Positions 32,551 through 39,327 of a stretch of DNA of 39,385 nt are shown piece by piece. This stretch comes from Actinomycetota bacterium (GTDB taxonomy: Bacteria; Actinomycetota; Thermoleophilia; Gaiellales; Gaiellaceae): contig PMOB01000005.1 of NCBI GenBank assembly GCA_003161615.1, forward strand, positions 320 through 39,704, given 5' to 3'. Position 1 is the first letter of the stretch; every line of letters begins with the position of its first letter. The notes under the pieces were generated by a model that made no database searches, was not told the origin of the DNA, and saw only the letters and a list, made by a program, of their open reading frames with translations. The position numbers and the translations under genes were made by a program.

Positions 32551-32588
32551 TTGACAGGAGAACATGCGTTCGTATAGAACATACGTTC
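32551..32588 (+). promoter_or_regulatory. LexA-controlled imuB promoter with two SOS boxes
   Basis: A perfect -35 TTGACA (32551-32556) is followed 16 bp later by TATAGA (32573-32578), or 18 bp later by TAGAAC. Two LexA-type palindromes, GAAC-ATGC-GTTC (32560-32571) and GAAC-ATAC-GTTC (32577-32588), fill the spacer and cover the -10. Both fit the actinobacterial SOS consensus core CGAACRNRYGTTYG apart from outer bases. They are 17 bp centre to centre, which puts two repressor dimers at an offset of roughly one and a half turns. Confidence 0.85.
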
Positions 32589-32591
32589 CGA

Positions 32592-33773
32592 ATGATTGCT
32601 TGTCTCTCCATCCCAGGGCTCGAGTTGAAGGCGGCATTGCGCCGGACGCCGACGCTTGCTCTGCAGCCGGCGGCGCTCGCGCCGGAGCCGCAGGGAGAGC
32701 CGCTCGTCGGGCCGGTCACCGCCGCTGCCGAGGCCGCCGGCGTGCGGCCGGGGATGCGCCTGGGGGAGGCGCTCGCCACCTGTCCGGCGCTCGCGCTCGT
32801 CGAGCCCGACGCGGCCGGGGCGGAGCAGGCGTGGGAGGAGATCGTCCGCGCGCTCGAGGATGCGGGCTTCGCCGTCGAGCCGACTTCGCTCGGCGTCGTC
32901 TATTTCGAGACGCGGGGAGTCGAGCGGCTCTATGGCGGGCTCGAGCCGGCGCTGCGGCGCGCGCTCGACGCCGTCGGGAAGGAGTGGGACGCACGGATCG
33001 GCGCTGCCGGCCGGCGTTTCGCTGCACTTGCGGCAGCTTCTGTCGCGCGACCCGGGCAGGTAGTCGTGGTCGCCGCTGAGGAGCTGCCGCAGTTCCTCGC
33101 GCCGCTACCGCTCACGCTTCTCCCGCTCGAGCGTGGCCGCTACGAAGAACTGGAAGCGCTCGGAGTTCGCAAGCTGGGACAGCTTGCCGGGCTTCCGGGT
33201 GGCGCCGTCGCTGAACGCTTGGGGCCGGACGGCCGGCGCGCCTGGAGTCTGGCGAGGGGTGGGACGGCCGCGCGCGTGCGCGGTCGTCGCCCGCCCGCCG
33301 CAGTCTTCGCCTCACTCGAGTTCCCGGAGGCGATCGGCAACGAGCTCACGCTGCGCCGTGCCCTCGCCGGACTGATCGACAAGGCGCTCGCGCGGCCGGA
33401 ACGCCGCGACCGCTTCGTCCGCAAGCTCGCGCTCTCCGCGCGTCTCGAGACCGGGGGCTCCTGGCGCCGGACGCTGACGCTGCGCGAGCCGAGCGCCGAC
33501 TCCGAGCGGATCCGCGTCGCGCTCGCTCCGCGGCTCGCCGACCTGCCTTCGCCTGTCGTCGAGCTTCGTCTCGAGCTCGTGGAACTGACCGAGCCGGCCG
33601 GCCATCAGCTCGAGCTGCTCGCTGCGGGCGCGGAGGATCGCACCCGGCTGCGGGAAGGGCTGCGCCAGGTGCGGGCGAGCACCGGCTCAGGCTCCGTCTG
33701 CACCGTCGTGGAGGTGGCGCCGTGGTCTCGGGTTCCAGAGTCCCGCGCACTGCTGGTTCCGAAGGACGAGTAG
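32592..33773 (+). CDS. imuB: ImuB, catalytically dead Y-family polymerase homologue
   Basis: Adaptor of the mycobacterial-type SOS mutasome, bridging DnaE2 and the beta clamp. The N-terminus IACLSIPGLELKAALRR aligns with the Y-family start but lacks the DxD acidic residues, and the usual SxDE-x-LD is SLGVVYFETRGVERLYGG, so no polymerase activity is expected, as in known ImuB. A clamp-binding pentapeptide QLELL is at 339-343. At 393 residues it is shorter than mycobacterial ImuB (~500). ATG 32592 begins the first strand and lies just downstream of the LexA-box promoter. No imuA' gene is in the window. Confidence 0.9.
   Translation: MIACLSIPGLELKAALRRTPTLALQPAALAPEPQGEPLVGPVTAAAEAAGVRPGMRLGEALATCPALALVEPDAAGAEQAWEEIVRALEDAGFAVEPTSLGVVYFETRGVERLYGGLEPALRRALDAVGKEWDARIGAAGRRFAALAAASVARPGQVVVVAAEELPQFLAPLPLTLLPLERGRYEELEALGVRKLGQLAGLPGGAVAERLGPDGRRAWSLARGGTAARVRGRRPPAAVFASLEFPEAIGNELTLRRALAGLIDKALARPERRDRFVRKLALSARLETGGSWRRTLTLREPSADSERIRVALAPRLADLPSPVVELRLELVELTEPAGHQLELLAAGAEDRTRLREGLRQVRASTGSGSVCTVVEVAPWSRVPESRALLVPKDE
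33710..33714 (+). promoter_or_regulatory. Shine-Dalgarno of the DUF6504 gene inside imuB
   Basis: GGAGG 7 bases before GTG 33722. It lies in the imuB coding region and fixes the overlapping start. Confidence 0.5.
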
Positions 33774-34009
33774 CCCGGTTCAATGCGCCGCGGGCGGCGC
33801 GCGTCGAGGCGAACCCGAACGGGGCGCCGCTCGAGGTGAACCACCAGGCCGTCGGATGCGTGCGCGAGGAGTGGCGCGTCGTCGACCGCTGGTGGACGGA
33901 GGAGCCGGTCGTCCGCCGCTACTTCGAGATCGTCCTCGAGACCGGCGAGAACACCGTCGTGTTCCACGACGGCGCCGGCGGAGGCTGGTTCACGCAACGA
34001 GGCGCCTGA
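33722..34009 (+). CDS. DUF6504-like protein associated with imuB
   Basis: A 95-residue protein translated from within the imuB end (52-base overlap). The core EWRVVDRWWTEEPVVRRYFEIVLETG, followed by TVVFHDGAGGGWFTQRGA, resembles the DUF6504 family that commonly sits beside imuB and dnaE2 in Actinomycetota; its role is unknown. The first ~30 residues are low complexity. The 3' end overlaps the opposed thiE gene by 20 bases. Confidence 0.75.
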   Translation: MVSGSRVPRTAGSEGRVARFNAPRAARVEANPNGAPLEVNHQAVGCVREEWRVVDRWWTEEPVVRRYFEIVLETGENTVVFHDGAGGGWFTQRGA

Positions 34010-34655: not shown

Positions 34656-35729
34656 GTGCTGCGGTCGCGCCTCGCCATCGTCCTCGCCGTGCTCGCGGCG
34701 ATCGCGCTCGTGGGCGCGCTGCTGACGAAGAAGGGTCACACGCCGGGCGCGACGACCTCCACGCAGCCGAAGCAGAATCCGAATCGGGTTGTGACGCTGA
34801 AAGGGCCGCTACCCGGCGGCCTGCTGATCGCCGACCGCGGCAACAACCGCATCCTTCTCGTCGACCCACGCCGGCGCACGCTCTGGAACTTCCCGACCGC
34901 CCGTGACCGCGCCGGCGGCGCTCACCTGTTCTTCGACGACGACACCTTCGTCGAACCGGGCGGGAAAGCGCTCGTCACGAACGAGGAGGACAACCACGAC
35001 ATCCTCTCGATCAACATCAAGACCGGCCGGATCACGCGCCTCTACGGCCATCCCGGCGTCAGGGGAAGCAGCCCGGGTCTTCTGAACACGCCCGACGACG
35101 CGTACGTCCTCCCCGACGGGACGATGACCGTGGCGGACGCCTACAACTGCCGGATCCTCTTCATCCGTCATCACCGGATCGTCCGCCAGATCGGGACGAC
35201 GGGCGTCTGCGTCCACAACCCGCCGAGCACGCTCGGCTCGGTGAACGGTGACACGCCGCTCCCGGACGGCGGCGTCCTCGTCTCGGAGATCAACGGCTCG
35301 TGGATCGACAACTTCTCGAAGACGGGAAAGTTCCGCTGGGCCTTCCAAGCGCCGGTCTCGTATCCCTCCGACCCGCAGCCGCTCTCCGGCGGCCGGATCC
35401 TCCTCACGGACTACAACAAGCCGGGCGCCGCGCTGATCGTGAATCGCCACGGGCAGATCCTGTGGCGCTACGCGCCCGCGTCGGGGTGGGGGGAACTCAA
35501 CCACCCGTCGCTCGCGATCATGCTCCCGAACGGCGACATCGCGATCAACGACGACTACAACGACCGCGTCGTGATCGTGGACCCGAGAAAGCACAAGATC
35601 GTCTGGGACTACGGGCACCTCGGCCGTTCGGGCACGACGCGTGGCTTCCTCAACACGCCGGACGGGATGGACTACATCCCCCTTGGCCCGCACGAGAAGC
35701 CGCTCTGGCAGCTCGTGCACCACCCGTAG
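34656..35729 (+). CDS. Exported NHL/PQQ-like beta-propeller protein
   Basis: A 357-residue protein with an N-terminal signal anchor (LRSRLAIVLAVLAAIALVGALL), a Thr/Pro/Gln linker and then repeated propeller blades: GGLLIADRGNNRILLVDPRRRTLW, DGTMTVADAYNCRILFI, GGVLVSEINGSWIDNF, GGRILLTDYNKPGAALIV and NGDIAINDDYNDRVVIVDPRKHKIVWDY. About six blades can be counted. No catalytic site is evident; ligand binding on the cell surface is the likely role. It stands between imuB/DUF6504 and dnaE2 without obvious connection. Confidence 0.8.
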   Translation: MLRSRLAIVLAVLAAIALVGALLTKKGHTPGATTSTQPKQNPNRVVTLKGPLPGGLLIADRGNNRILLVDPRRRTLWNFPTARDRAGGAHLFFDDDTFVEPGGKALVTNEEDNHDILSINIKTGRITRLYGHPGVRGSSPGLLNTPDDAYVLPDGTMTVADAYNCRILFIRHHRIVRQIGTTGVCVHNPPSTLGSVNGDTPLPDGGVLVSEINGSWIDNFSKTGKFRWAFQAPVSYPSDPQPLSGGRILLTDYNKPGAALIVNRHGQILWRYAPASGWGELNHPSLAIMLPNGDIAINDDYNDRVVIVDPRKHKIVWDYGHLGRSGTTRGFLNTPDGMDYIPLGPHEKPLWQLVHHP

Positions 35730-35733
35730 CGAA

Positions 35734-35755
35734 CGAACATATGTTCGCCTAGACT
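35734..35755 (+). promoter_or_regulatory. Perfect LexA box and -10 element directed towards dnaE2
   Basis: CGAACATATGTTCG (35734-35747) is a perfect 14-bp palindrome that satisfies the actinobacterial SOS consensus at every position. TAGACT (35750-35755) follows two bases later. It lies in the convergent gap between the propeller and cupin genes, so the transcript would run antisense across the whole cupin gene into dnaE2. TAGACT is 6 bases before ATG 35762, which opens a 119-codon frame ending at 36121 and overlapping the dnaE2 start as ATGA. That frame looks like a codon-aligned shadow of the cupin gene in protein terms, but it could couple translation to dnaE2. Confidence 0.75.
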
Positions 35756-35767
35756 GGGTGGATGAAA

Positions 35768-36106
35768 CTACCCGCGCAGCGAGTCGAGGAAGCCGACGCG
35801 CGGCGTGTGGAAGTTGAGGAGGCGGATCGCCGTCCCCGCCGGGCGGAAGCCGTGCTCGATGTTCGGCGGGATCGAGACGAACGTGCCAGGCACGCTGAGA
35901 TGCCAGGCGCCGTCGAGGAAGAACTCGACCTCGCCCTCGAGGACGTAGAACGAATCCGTGTGGTCGGCGTGGGTGTGCGGGTCGACGCCCTCGAAGTCGG
36001 ATGGGAAAGAGAGCTCGAGCGCCTCGAGGTGCGACAGCTCGGCGAGGACACGGTGGTTCCCGATCCGCTCGCCCCCGCCGGCACTGGTGAAGACGGGCTC
36101 TCCCAT
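35768..36106 (-). CDS. Cupin-domain protein
   Basis: A 112-residue single-domain cupin. Motif 1 is DPHTHADHTDSFYVLEGE, with His44 and His46 and Asp51 near the usual Glu position, and motif 2 is PGTFVSIPPNIEHGF with His85; these bind a metal in the barrel. Many such proteins act on sugars or small aromatics or sense a ligand; no specific reaction can be named. The start codons of cupin and dnaE2 are 11 bases apart, facing away from each other. Confidence 0.85.
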   Translation of the reverse strand: MGEPVFTSAGGGERIGNHRVLAELSHLEALELSFPSDFEGVDPHTHADHTDSFYVLEGEVEFFLDGAWHLSVPGTFVSIPPNIEHGFRPAGTAIRLLNFHTPRVGFLDSLRG

Positions 36107-36117
36107 CGCGCAGGATC

Positions 36118-39100
36118 ATGACGTACGCGGAGCTCCATGCGCATTCCGCGTACTCGTTCCTCGACGGGGCGTCGCAGCCGGAGGAGCTCGCGGCGCGCGC
36201 GGCCGAGCTCGGCTACGAGGCGCTCGCGCTCACCGACCACGACGGCGTCTACGGCTCCCTCGAGTTCGCGCACGCGGCGAAGCACTTCGGCGTCCGCCCG
36301 ATCACCGGGGCAGAGATCACGCTCGCGGGCGGATCGCACGTCACGTTGCTGGTCGAGAGCGCGGCGGGCTACGCGAACCTCTGCCGGCTCCTCACCGCAG
36401 CGCACGCGCACACCCGCGACTCGACGAACCGGGAGCCGTCGCCGCCGCGGCTCGAGCAGACGCTCCTCGAGCAGCAGAACGAGGGGCTCGTCTGTCTGTC
36501 GGGTTGCGCGCGCGACGGGCTCGCCGTGCGGGACCCGAACGCGGCGGTGCGGCTCGCGCGCGCCTTCGGCCGCGACCGCTTCTTCGTCGAGCTGCAGCGT
36601 CCGTACGAGCGCGGCGACGCGCGCCGCAATGCCCGGCTGCGCGAGCTCGCCGAGGAGCTCGGGGTCGCGACGGTCGCGACCGGAGACGTCCACGCCCACG
36701 GCCGCCGCCGAGCAGCGCTGCAGGACATCCTCGTCGCCGTCCGCTGCCGCACCTCGCTCGAGGGCTGTGAGCGCGAAAGGCGCGGCAACCACGAGTCCGT
36801 GTTGCTGTCCCCCCAGGAAAGCCTCGATCGCTTTCCCGAAGATCGTGAGGCGGTCCTCCGCACCGGAGAGCTCGCCCAGCGGCTCGAGTTCGATCTGACC
36901 CAAGAGCTCGGCTACCGCTATCCCGACTTCTCCGATGGGGCGGAGCCGGCGATCGTCCAGCTCCGCCGCGTCTGCGAGGCGGCGTTCACCGAGCGCTACA
37001 GCGACCTCAACGGCCACAAGCGACGCGTCCGGAAGCGGCTGGAGGAGGAGCTCTCGCTCATCGACGAGCTCGGTCTCGCCGGCTTCTTCCTCCTCCACTG
37101 GGAGGTGCTCGAGCTCGCGCGCGAGGTCGCGCTCGAAGTACGCGGCCCCGGCTCGATGCGTCACGTCCTGCCGCCAGGCCGCGGGCGCGGTTCGTCCGTC
37201 GGCTCGCTCGTCTGCTACCTGACCGGCCTCTCACACGTCGATCCGGTCGCGAACAACCTCTCGCTCGGCCGCTTCCTCAACCGTGAGCTCGCGTCGGTGC
37301 CCGACATCGACCTGGACTTCCCGCGCGACATCCGGGAGAAGCTCATCGTCCGCGTTGTCGAGCGCTACGGATCCGAGCACGCCGCGCTCGTCGCGAGCTT
37401 CGCGACGTACCGCTCGCGCGGCGCGATCCGCGACGTCGGCAAGGCGCTCGGCCTCCCGTACGCCGACCTCGAGCGGCTCGCGCGCCTGACGGACGGCTGG
37501 AACGCGCAACGCGTCGCCGAGGAGATCGCGGCGCTCCCCGACGCTGCGACAAAGCTCCGTTCGCCGCGCTGGCGCGCCTTCGGCGCCCTGTGCAGCGAGA
37601 TCGCCGGCCTGCCGCGCCACATCTCCCAGCATCCAGGCGGGATGGTCATCTCGACACGACCGCTCGTCGAGCTCGTCCCCGTCCAGCCAGCCGCGATGGA
37701 AGGACGGCAGATGTGTCAGTGGGACAAGGACTCCTGCGCCGACGCGGGCTTCCTCAAGATCGACCTGCTTGGGCTGGGGATGCTGTCGGCGGTCGAGGAG
37801 TGCGTCGACCTGATCTCGAAGCACCGTGGCGAGCGGATCGACCTCTCGCGTGTGCGGCTTGACGACCCGGACGTGTTCGCCGAGATCCAGCGCGCCGACA
37901 CCGTCGGTTGCTTCCAGATCGAGAGCCGCGCCCAGATGCAGGTCATCCTCCGCACGCGCCCGGAGACGATCGACGACATCACCGTGCAGGTCGCGCTCGT
38001 GCGGCCGGGGCCGATCCAGGGCAAAGCCGTCCACCCGTACGTCGAGCGGCGGCAGAAGCTCCGCGACGATCCGTCCTATCGCGCGCCGGCGGATCATCCG
38101 CTGCTCGAGGAGCCGCTGCGGGAGACGCTCGGGGTGATCGTTTTCCAGGATCAGGTGCTCGACGTCGCCGTCCATCTCGCCGGCTTCTCGGTCGGCGAGG
38201 CGGAGGGGCTGCGGCGCGCGATGAGCCGCAAGCGCTCGCACGCGGCGCTCGAGGCGTGGCGGGATCGGTTCGTTGCGGGCGCGCTCGAGAAGGGGGTGGA
38301 GGACGCGAAGGCGCACGAGCTCTACGACAAGCTCGTCGCATTCTCCGGTTTCGGCTTCCCGAAGTCGCACGCGGCGGCGTTCGGGTTGCTCGCGTACCAG
38401 TCGGCGTGGCTGCGGCACCACTACGCGCCGGAGTTCCTCGCGGCGTTGCTCAACGCGCAGCCGATGGGCTTCTATCCGCCGGCGACGCTCGTACGCGACG
38501 GGCAGCGGCGCGGGGTGGAGACACGGTCGCCGCACATCAACCTCAGCGAGGTCGACTGCGTGATCGAGGACGGCGGAGTTCGCGTGGGCCTGAAGTACGT
38601 GGCCGGAGTGGGGGAGGACGACGCGGAGGCGGTCGTCGCCTCTCGCCCGTACTCCTCGGTGCGCGAGCTCGCGCAGCGGACGGGACTGTCGGAGGACGAG
38701 CTGCGCGCGCTCGCCGAGTCGGGCGCCTGCGACTGCTTCGGGCTGCGCCGGCGGGAGCTCCTGTGGCAGCTCGGCCTCGTGCCGCGGCCGGCGAGCGTTC
38801 CGGGGACTGAAGGGAAGGCGAAGCAGCTCGCGCTTCCTTTGGATCCCACGGCGGCGACGCCGGACCTGCCCGAGCCGACGGTGTGGGAGCGGATGCTGAC
38901 CGACTACCGGACGACGGGACTTTCGGTCGGCGTCCATCCGCTGGCGTTGCTGCGACCGCATCTGCCGCCCGGGACGCTGTCGAGCGAGGAGCTGCGCGTG
39001 CAGCCGCACCGTGCCGAAATCCAGTTCGCAGGGCTCGTCGTCGCACGCCAGCGGCCGGCGACGGCGAACGGCGTCTGCTTCATGCTCCTCGAGGACGAAC

Positions 39101-39327
39101 AGGCGCAGGTGAACCTCGTGATCGCGCCGCAGGTGTACGAGCGCTTCCGCGCGGTCGTGCGCAGTGAGCCGCTGCTACTCGTGCGCGGCCGCTACGAGCA
39201 CTCCGACCGGAACCGGAACGTCCTCGTCCGCGAGCTCGTCTCCCTGGCACCGCTGGCGCGACAGCTGACCGACGGAGCGGACGTCCATGCCGCTCTCCCG
39301 CGCGCCCACCACTTCGGGCACCGGTAG
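36118..39327 (+). CDS. dnaE2: Error-prone DNA polymerase III alpha subunit DnaE2 (ImuC)
   Basis: Translesion polymerase of the SOS mutasome. The PHP domain starts YAELHAHSAYSFLDGAS, with ALALTDHDGVYG and GAEITLAGG (metal His/Asp residues, degenerate as usual in DnaE2). The polymerase core has GRGRGSSVGSLVCYLTGL, PDIDLDFPRDIREK (two catalytic Asp), the finger-domain FLKIDLLGLGMLSAVEE and VQVALVRPGPIQG. An OB domain near 980 (IQFAGLVVARQRPAT) follows, and the protein ends in PRAHHFGHR, like the SRDFR-type end of DnaE2. At 1069 residues it is of DnaE2, not DnaE1 (~1180), length. Only AGGA two bases before ATG 36118 might serve as ribosome binding site, which suggests coupling to upstream translation. 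Confidence 0.95.
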   Translation: MTYAELHAHSAYSFLDGASQPEELAARAAELGYEALALTDHDGVYGSLEFAHAAKHFGVRPITGAEITLAGGSHVTLLVESAAGYANLCRLLTAAHAHTRDSTNREPSPPRLEQTLLEQQNEGLVCLSGCARDGLAVRDPNAAVRLARAFGRDRFFVELQRPYERGDARRNARLRELAEELGVATVATGDVHAHGRRRAALQDILVAVRCRTSLEGCERERRGNHESVLLSPQESLDRFPEDREAVLRTGELAQRLEFDLTQELGYRYPDFSDGAEPAIVQLRRVCEAAFTERYSDLNGHKRRVRKRLEEELSLIDELGLAGFFLLHWEVLELAREVALEVRGPGSMRHVLPPGRGRGSSVGSLVCYLTGLSHVDPVANNLSLGRFLNRELASVPDIDLDFPRDIREKLIVRVVERYGSEHAALVASFATYRSRGAIRDVGKALGLPYADLERLARLTDGWNAQRVAEEIAALPDAATKLRSPRWRAFGALCSEIAGLPRHISQHPGGMVISTRPLVELVPVQPAAMEGRQMCQWDKDSCADAGFLKIDLLGLGMLSAVEECVDLISKHRGERIDLSRVRLDDPDVFAEIQRADTVGCFQIESRAQMQVILRTRPETIDDITVQVALVRPGPIQGKAVHPYVERRQKLRDDPSYRAPADHPLLEEPLRETLGVIVFQDQVLDVAVHLAGFSVGEAEGLRRAMSRKRSHAALEAWRDRFVAGALEKGVEDAKAHELYDKLVAFSGFGFPKSHAAAFGLLAYQSAWLRHHYAPEFLAALLNAQPMGFYPPATLVRDGQRRGVETRSPHINLSEVDCVIEDGGVRVGLKYVAGVGEDDAEAVVASRPYSSVRELAQRTGLSEDELRALAESGACDCFGLRRRELLWQLGLVPRPASVPGTEGKAKQLALPLDPTAATPDLPEPTVWERMLTDYRTTGLSVGVHPLALLRPHLPPGTLSSEELRVQPHRAEIQFAGLVVARQRPATANGVCFMLLEDEQAQVNLVIAPQVYERFRAVVRSEPLLLVRGRYEHSDRNRNVLVRELVSLAPLARQLTDGADVHAALPRAHHFGHR

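What the first reader, a model, noticed from the sequence alone, without database searches (positions are those of the whole stretch)
35762..36121. Possible leaderless overprinted leader ORF coupled to dnaE2
The TAGACT element is 6 bases before an ATG, the exact spacing of the leaderless starts elsewhere in the window. The ATG opens a 119-codon frame whose TGA overlaps the dnaE2 ATG as ATGA, while dnaE2 lacks a well-spaced ribosome binding site. Three independent signals (spacing, uninterrupted frame, stop/start overlap) agree. Against it: the frame is codon-aligned with cupin on the other strand, where stops are rare in GC-rich DNA, and the predicted protein looks like a shadow. It may be translated only to deliver ribosomes to dnaE2.
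Basis: partly seen in the sequence, partly recalled or inferred. Interest (0 to 1): 0.6.

Follow-up and report, generated by a model that had tools for sequence, protein, structure and literature searches.

The report
SOS-controlled leaderless leader ORF before dnaE2
A DNA-damage-controlled promoter appears to start an mRNA directly on a start codon whose otherwise meaningless reading frame runs backwards through another gene and hands ribosomes to an error-prone DNA polymerase gene, and this layout is kept in eight related genomes.

Summary
In detail: TAGACT ends 6 nt before ATG 35762, and a 119-codon frame follows whose TGA overlaps the dnaE2 ATG as ATGA. In six congeners dnaE2 itself starts 14 nt after such a box, so the ATG occupies a real SOS leaderless start position. 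All 8 genus genomes whose box lies distal to dnaE2 keep an ATG/GTG 14-16 nt after the box and a frame open to the dnaE2 start. It ends as ATGA in 7; in the eighth the overlap is longer. One of the 8 has only a cupin remnant, yet the frame persists. In the six-genome clade the start codon is invariant while all nine neighbouring unconstrained columns vary. None has a well-spaced SD or a -10-like hexamer just before dnaE2. Against a protein: openness across cupin is expected from codon usage (P about 0.3), and cupin four-fold sites are no slower than dnaE2's. Best reading: a leaderless, SOS-induced leader ORF antisense to cupin, kept as a ribosome conveyor, not for its peptide. Translation and coupling are inferred; no expression data exist here.

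The parts
35734..35747 (+). LexA/SOS box CGAACATATGTTCG (palindromic)
   Evidence: Only perfect match in the window; 7 in the genome, reversed control 3, including upstream of lexA and uvrA.
35750..35755 (+). -10-like element TAGACT
   Evidence: TAGACT in 6 of the 8 distal genomes read here besides variants TACACT (G004) and TAGGCT (G006).
35762..36121 (+). Leader ORF, 119 codons, predicted leaderless, antisense to cupin
   Evidence: start, phase and termination at the dnaE2 start kept in 8 of 8 distal-box genomes.
36118..36121 (+). ATGA stop/start overlap with dnaE2
   Evidence: ATGA in 7 of 8; in G006 the stop begins 13 nt after the dnaE2 ATG.
36118..39327 (+). dnaE2, error-prone DNA polymerase
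   Evidence: NCBIfam PRK05672 above its cut-off; Pfam domains.
35768..36106 (-). Cupin gene lying between the SOS promoter and dnaE2, codon-aligned with the leader ORF
   Evidence: Cupin_2 above cut-off; orthologues in six further distal genomes, a remnant in G008.
34656..35729 (+). NHL/PQQ-like gene ending just upstream of the box (flank, marks the locus)

Best explanation
An SOS-induced, LexA-repressed promoter lies beyond the far end of a cupin gene that sits head-to-head with dnaE2. Its transcript begins at or next to ATG 35762, so it is leaderless. Ribosomes start on that 5'-terminal ATG and read a frame antisense to cupin. They stop at the TGA inside ATGA and re-initiate on dnaE2, which has neither a usable SD nor a leaderless promoter of its own. 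The peptide is dispensable; start codon, phase and stop position are what is kept. Shown: box, spacing, conservation of start, phase and overlap, absence of other initiation signals, absence of peptide constraint. Inferred: LexA binding, the transcription start, translation, termination-reinitiation, and any effect of the antisense RNA on cupin.
For: Perfect LexA box 14 nt before the ATG, the same distance as to dnaE2 itself in six congeners. 8 of 8 distal-box genomes keep an RTG at 14-16 nt and a frame open to the dnaE2 start, 7 with ATGA, against 6.6-9.0% by chance per leader. The start codon is invariant in the six-genome clade while nine neighbouring free columns vary (1 in 220 if invariant columns fell at random). 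G008 keeps phase and ATGA although its cupin has lost its core and in-frame ATG. No TAnnnT and no well-spaced SD within 20 nt upstream of dnaE2 in any of the 8. Precedent: PPE2 without SD depends on an AUGA-overlapping uORF (passages of PMC11260477); 5' RTG suffices for leaderless initiation in mycobacteria (passages of PMC4633059).
Against: No expression data. The 8 genomes are one to three lineages, not eight, and the placing of G013 and G008 is weak. Openness is explained by cupin codon usage, and the short G008 frame is open in 52% of shuffles. G006 lacks the tight ATGA. ATGA is not significantly tied to the distal type (7 of 8 versus 3 of 8, p 0.12).
Confidence: 0.6

Rival explanations
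1. The leader is in effect a long 5' region: the frame is a shadow of cupin, any translation from the 5' ATG is incidental (pervasive translation), and dnaE2 initiates on its own without an SD.
For: The frame would be open anyway; no peptide constraint; pervasive translation of leaderless ORFs is known in M. tuberculosis (passages of PMC9094748).
Against: Start codon invariant amid varying neighbours; phase kept in 8 of 8 despite starts at 14, 15 and 16 nt; kept in G008 without a working cupin.
Confidence: 0.2
2. The leader is translated to keep the long antisense RNA from Rho-dependent termination or decay, while dnaE2 initiates independently; the exact ATGA matters little.
For: Open frame up to the dnaE2 start in 8 of 8; G006 has a 16-nt overlap rather than ATGA.
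Against: dnaE2 lacks initiation signals of its own; ATGA in 7 of 8. In the uPPE2 case Rho did not account for the dependence (passages of PMC11260477).
Confidence: 0.12
3. The arrangement is kept mainly for SOS-induced antisense repression of cupin (excludon-like), with the ORF as a by-product.
For: The geometry fits: SOS promoter at the 3' end of cupin pointing through it.
Against: G008 keeps the layout with only a cupin remnant; no role of cupin in SOS is known to me.
Confidence: 0.05
4. The frame encodes a small protein with a function of its own.
For: Conserved length and start in the six-genome clade.
Against: No Pfam match; cupin four-fold sites diverge 0.324 (306 of 944) versus 0.272 (1317 of 4839) in dnaE2, so no extra constraint; G008 carries only 64 codons.
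Confidence: 0.03

Closest known systems
uPPE2-PPE2 leader ORF of Mycobacterium tuberculosis (AUGA overlap, termination-reinitiation; PMC11260477, passages read)
   Same: Out-of-frame leader ORF, AUGA overlap, downstream gene without SD.
   Different: There the leader ORF has an SD and a B12 riboswitch; here the start is predicted leaderless and LexA-controlled, and the ORF is antisense to another gene.
Leaderless small ORFs at 5' ends of mycobacterial transcripts (PMC4633059 and PMC9094748, passages read)
   Same: RTG at the transcript 5' end expected to be translated; many such ORFs without purifying selection.
   Different: Here start, phase and stop are conserved across species and tied to a downstream gene.
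SOS-regulated dnaE2 of actinobacteria (Streptomyces venezuelae LexA regulon, PMC9380542, passages read)
   Same: LexA motif tCGAAC-N4-GNNCGa and dnaE2 as SOS target.
   Different: Here the box lies 384 nt upstream, beyond an opposite-strand gene.
Excludon / noncontiguous operon (PMC7154746, search listing only; concept otherwise recalled)
   Same: A transcript spans a gene on the opposite strand to reach its own gene.
   Different: Mutual repression is not shown, and the antisense part is predicted to be translated.

Membership tests
LexA/SOS-regulated promoter | LexA-type palindrome in the promoter, shared with known SOS genes of the genome | tested here: met
   Perfect box; same motif before lexA, uvrA and an Rv2578c-like gene.
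LexA/SOS-regulated promoter | LexA binds and expression rises on DNA damage | not testable with these tools
   Needs an experiment.
Leaderless ORF | -10 element placed so that the transcript starts at the RTG start codon | tested here: met
   Sequence level only: TAGACT then 6 nt then ATG; same geometry in congeners and at the direct-type dnaE2.
Leaderless ORF | Mapped 5' end at the start codon and ribosome occupancy | not testable with these tools
   No transcriptome or ribosome data.
Translationally coupled leader ORF (NUGA overlap) | Stop overlaps downstream start, and downstream gene lacks own initiation signals | tested here: met
   ATGA in 7 of 8, longer overlap in 1 of 8; no well-spaced SD or -10.
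Translationally coupled leader ORF (NUGA overlap) | Downstream expression depends on upstream translation | not testable with these tools
   Reporter test proposed.
Protein-coding gene (overprinted) | Selection on the encoded amino-acid sequence | tested here: not met
   Cupin four-fold sites are not slower than dnaE2's.
Excludon | Antisense transcript lowers expression of the opposite gene | not testable with these tools
   Geometry fits; effect unknown.

The most novel reading that the evidence does not exclude
A coding-neutral 'conveyor' ORF: selection keeps only start codon, phase and stop, so that leaderless ribosomes loaded at an SOS promoter are carried about 120 codons antisense through another gene and delivered to dnaE2, while the same transcript shuts cupin off during SOS. 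Loss of the cupin segment turns the same promoter into a direct leaderless promoter of dnaE2.
Probability: 0.3. Interest if true: 0.65.

Novelty: new variant of a known kind. Interest (0 to 1): 0.5.

Why it matters
It would be a translated frame under selection for its start, phase and stop but not its peptide, and would show how a leaderless promoter can serve a gene hundreds of bases away across an opposite-strand gene. It also warns that unannotated 'shadow' ORFs antisense to real genes can act in cis, and it gives a simple reporter-testable case of coupling from a leaderless start to an SOS mutagenesis polymerase.

Tried and rejected
Frame openness as evidence: rejected, explained by cupin codon usage. 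Peptide selection: rejected. Shuffle test on the G008 frame alone: uninformative, 0.52. Other genera as extra cases: none of the further loci of the family examined has a distal perfect box with a cupin-spanning ORF. L033 has a box, a 17-codon leaderless-type ORF and then an SD-like GGGAGG before an in-frame dnaE2 ATG. L224 and L233 have a box at -51 with a frame that runs on into dnaE2 rather than stopping at its start, so they are not cases. Bridging frames from a small conserved upstream gene to dnaE2 in L075, L079, L029 and L063 were judged suggestive only, because start codons in range are likely by chance; L075 has ATGA at both ends. Cupins that overlap the dnaE2 start in L018-type loci have shorter frames in the ATGA phase (35-51 codons in L018, L019, L021, L022, L028, L068, L076; 108 in L070), but those cupins start at another distance from dnaE2 and most of those dnaE2 starts have a TAG-like hexamer of their own, so I do not take them as a fair control. 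RNA folding round the dnaE2 start (mean unpaired probability 0.27-0.54) had no shuffle control and is not used as evidence. Structure prediction was not run: the peptide shows no selection.

Rows left out: the tree used 33 chosen rows, five of them under half filled. Of 16 genus genomes, G011 has no dnaE2 start and was not classed; G005 has two dnaE2 starts, both direct; G002 has its box over the start (box at -13) and is not counted among the six at 14 nt. Cupin statistics use seven genomes, G008 left out because its cupin is a remnant. In one search, 15 of 44 fetched loci were duplicates of earlier ones and dropped. In one search, 82 of 103 family genomes had a dnaE2 start match.

Full report
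Setting. The window is contig 21 of a 2.3-Mb high-GC genome whose nearest named relatives are MAGs labelled Thermoleophilia or Actinomycetota. Sixteen genomes of its genus are held. Around the finding lie a Y-family-polymerase-like gene (ImuB-like by my reading; 32592-33773; IMS domain), a small conserved protein (match at 33857-34000; I recall it as DUF6504, but no library named it), a thiamine-phosphate-synthase-like gene on the minus strand, an NHL/PQQ-like gene (34656-35729), the cupin gene on the minus strand (35768-36106) and dnaE2 (36118-39327, NCBIfam error-prone DNA polymerase).

TAGACT ends 6 nt before ATG 35762; the 119-codon frame ends in ATGA on dnaE2. The same 6-nt spacing occurs at TAGGCT/GTG 7130 and TAGAAT/GTG 19871, the first codons of long ORFs, although the number of such matches in the window is what shuffles give. 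The codon-aligned antisense position of cupin makes an open frame likely: with dnaE2 codon usage, 1.15 stops are expected over seven cupins, so none at all is unremarkable (P 0.32).

CGAACATATGTTCG, a perfect LexA-type box, lies at 35734-35747, 14 nt before the ATG. The motif occurs 7 times in the genome (reversed control 3), including upstream of lexA, uvrA and an Rv2578c-like radical SAM gene, and fits the Streptomyces LexA consensus (passages of PMC9380542). It lies between the 3' ends of the NHL and cupin genes, so the gene it most simply serves is dnaE2, beyond cupin. Examples of other box-led genes of the genus begin 14-22 nt after the box (lexA later, 27-38 nt); one in G015 (exonuclease-like) has the same TAGACT and the same 14-nt geometry (L140).

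Comparison within the genus. In G015, G005, G007, G003, G012 and G010 the same box stands 28 nt before dnaE2 itself, with the start 14 nt after the box, and no cupin lies between. In G002 the box overlaps the start. In the window genome, G009, G001, G014, G004, G006, G013 and G008 the box is 220-393 nt from dnaE2. The NHL gene ends just before the box in both types (3 of the 7 direct genomes, L010, L013, L015; 5 of the 8 distal, L007, L008, L012, L023, L039), so this is one locus with or without the cupin segment; in the other genomes the upstream neighbour differs. G011 has no dnaE2 start and cannot be classed. Thus 8 genomes are distal, 7 direct and 1 unknown, of 16.

In all 8 distal genomes an ATG (6) or GTG (2) stands 14-16 nt after the box and opens a frame to the dnaE2 start. 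It ends as ATGA in 7; in G006 dnaE2 codon 2 differs and the frame stops at a TAG that begins 13 nt after the dnaE2 ATG. Only 6.6-9.0% of points within these leaders would give such a start 6-8 nt downstream. In the six-genome clade the start codon is invariant while all six spacer columns and all three columns of codon 2 vary; the next codon is the cupin stop. The cupin-to-dnaE2 spacer is 11 nt in 7 of 7 cupin-bearing genomes. In G013 the start is at 16 nt and in G008 at 15 nt, yet both are in the right phase. In G008 cupin has lost its core and has no in-frame ATG, but 64 codons remain open to ATGA. Openness of so short a frame is not unusual (0.52 in shuffles), so phase, start and stop carry that case.

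The tree of 33 chosen dnaE2 rows puts six distal genomes in one clade (100/98). G013 falls beside the direct-type genomes (91/85) and G008 apart, but G013 fills only 18% of columns and forks at the base of the genus are open. So there are one to three independent lineages, not eight. As a cupin next to dnaE2 is common in other genera of the family, I infer that the direct type arose by loss of the cupin segment.

What is not kept. Cupin four-fold sites differ at 0.324 (306 of 944 comparisons) against 0.272 (1317 of 4839) in dnaE2 of the same seven genomes. These sites are first positions of leader-ORF codons, so the peptide is not under visible selection. No Pfam family matches it.

How it most likely works. 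SOS relieves LexA; RNA polymerase starts at or beside ATG 35762; the 5' ATG loads ribosomes (ATG or GTG at the 5' end is necessary and sufficient in mycobacteria, passages of PMC4633059); they translate the antisense frame and stop in ATGA; dnaE2 is reached by reinitiation. dnaE2 has no well-spaced SD and no -10-like hexamer within 20 nt upstream in any of the eight. uPPE2-PPE2 of M. tuberculosis is a tested precedent for AUGA-dependent expression of a gene without an SD (passages of PMC11260477); ATGA overlaps and coupling by termination-reinitiation are widespread (abstract and passages of PMC6728339). All steps from LexA binding and transcription start onward are inferred.

Limits. No expression data; related genomes; incomplete MAGs; G006 departs from ATGA; the association of ATGA with the distal type is not significant on its own (7 of 8 versus 3 of 8, p 0.12). 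Searches for a printed description of this arrangement (open-licence PMC papers only) showed none among the titles and abstract starts listed; this is not proof of absence.

Noticed in passing
window 32559-32589: Two degenerate LexA-like boxes (1 and 2 mismatches) stand just before ATG 32592 of the ImuB-like gene, so the mutasome partner may be SOS-controlled separately from dnaE2.
   Followed up: partly
L018, L019, L021, L028, L068, L070, L076 and similar, just before dnaE2: In other genera a conserved CTAGGAG-like stretch 7-8 nt before a TTG/GTG dnaE2 start, inside the head-to-head cupin, with no perfect LexA box nearby: perhaps a different leaderless promoter.
   Followed up: no
L044 (G040), upstream of dnaE2: In another family of the order an SOS box is followed by a leaderless-type 83-aa conserved gene whose stop overlaps dnaE2 as GTGA: the same slot filled by a real gene.
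   Followed up: partly
L075 (JACDER010000037.1), between the small conserved gene and dnaE2: A 131-codon frame antisense to a cupin has ATGA overlaps at both ends, linking the upstream gene to dnaE2.
   Followed up: partly
L051, L141, L146, L156, L162: Tandem LexA boxes 23-25 nt apart precede a short membrane/LysM-looking protein in several genus members; the second box lies in or at the start of the gene (the protein type is my reading).
   Followed up: no
L140, L144, L150, L158, L165: A box-led leaderless-type gene starting MQLRLDAADRL with an exonuclease domain recurs in the genus: a candidate new SOS gene.
   Followed up: partly
L079 (JAICUZ010000134.1): A record titled Burkholderiales MAG carries a dnaE2 that groups with this actinobacterial family: likely mislabelled or mis-binned.
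   Followed up: no
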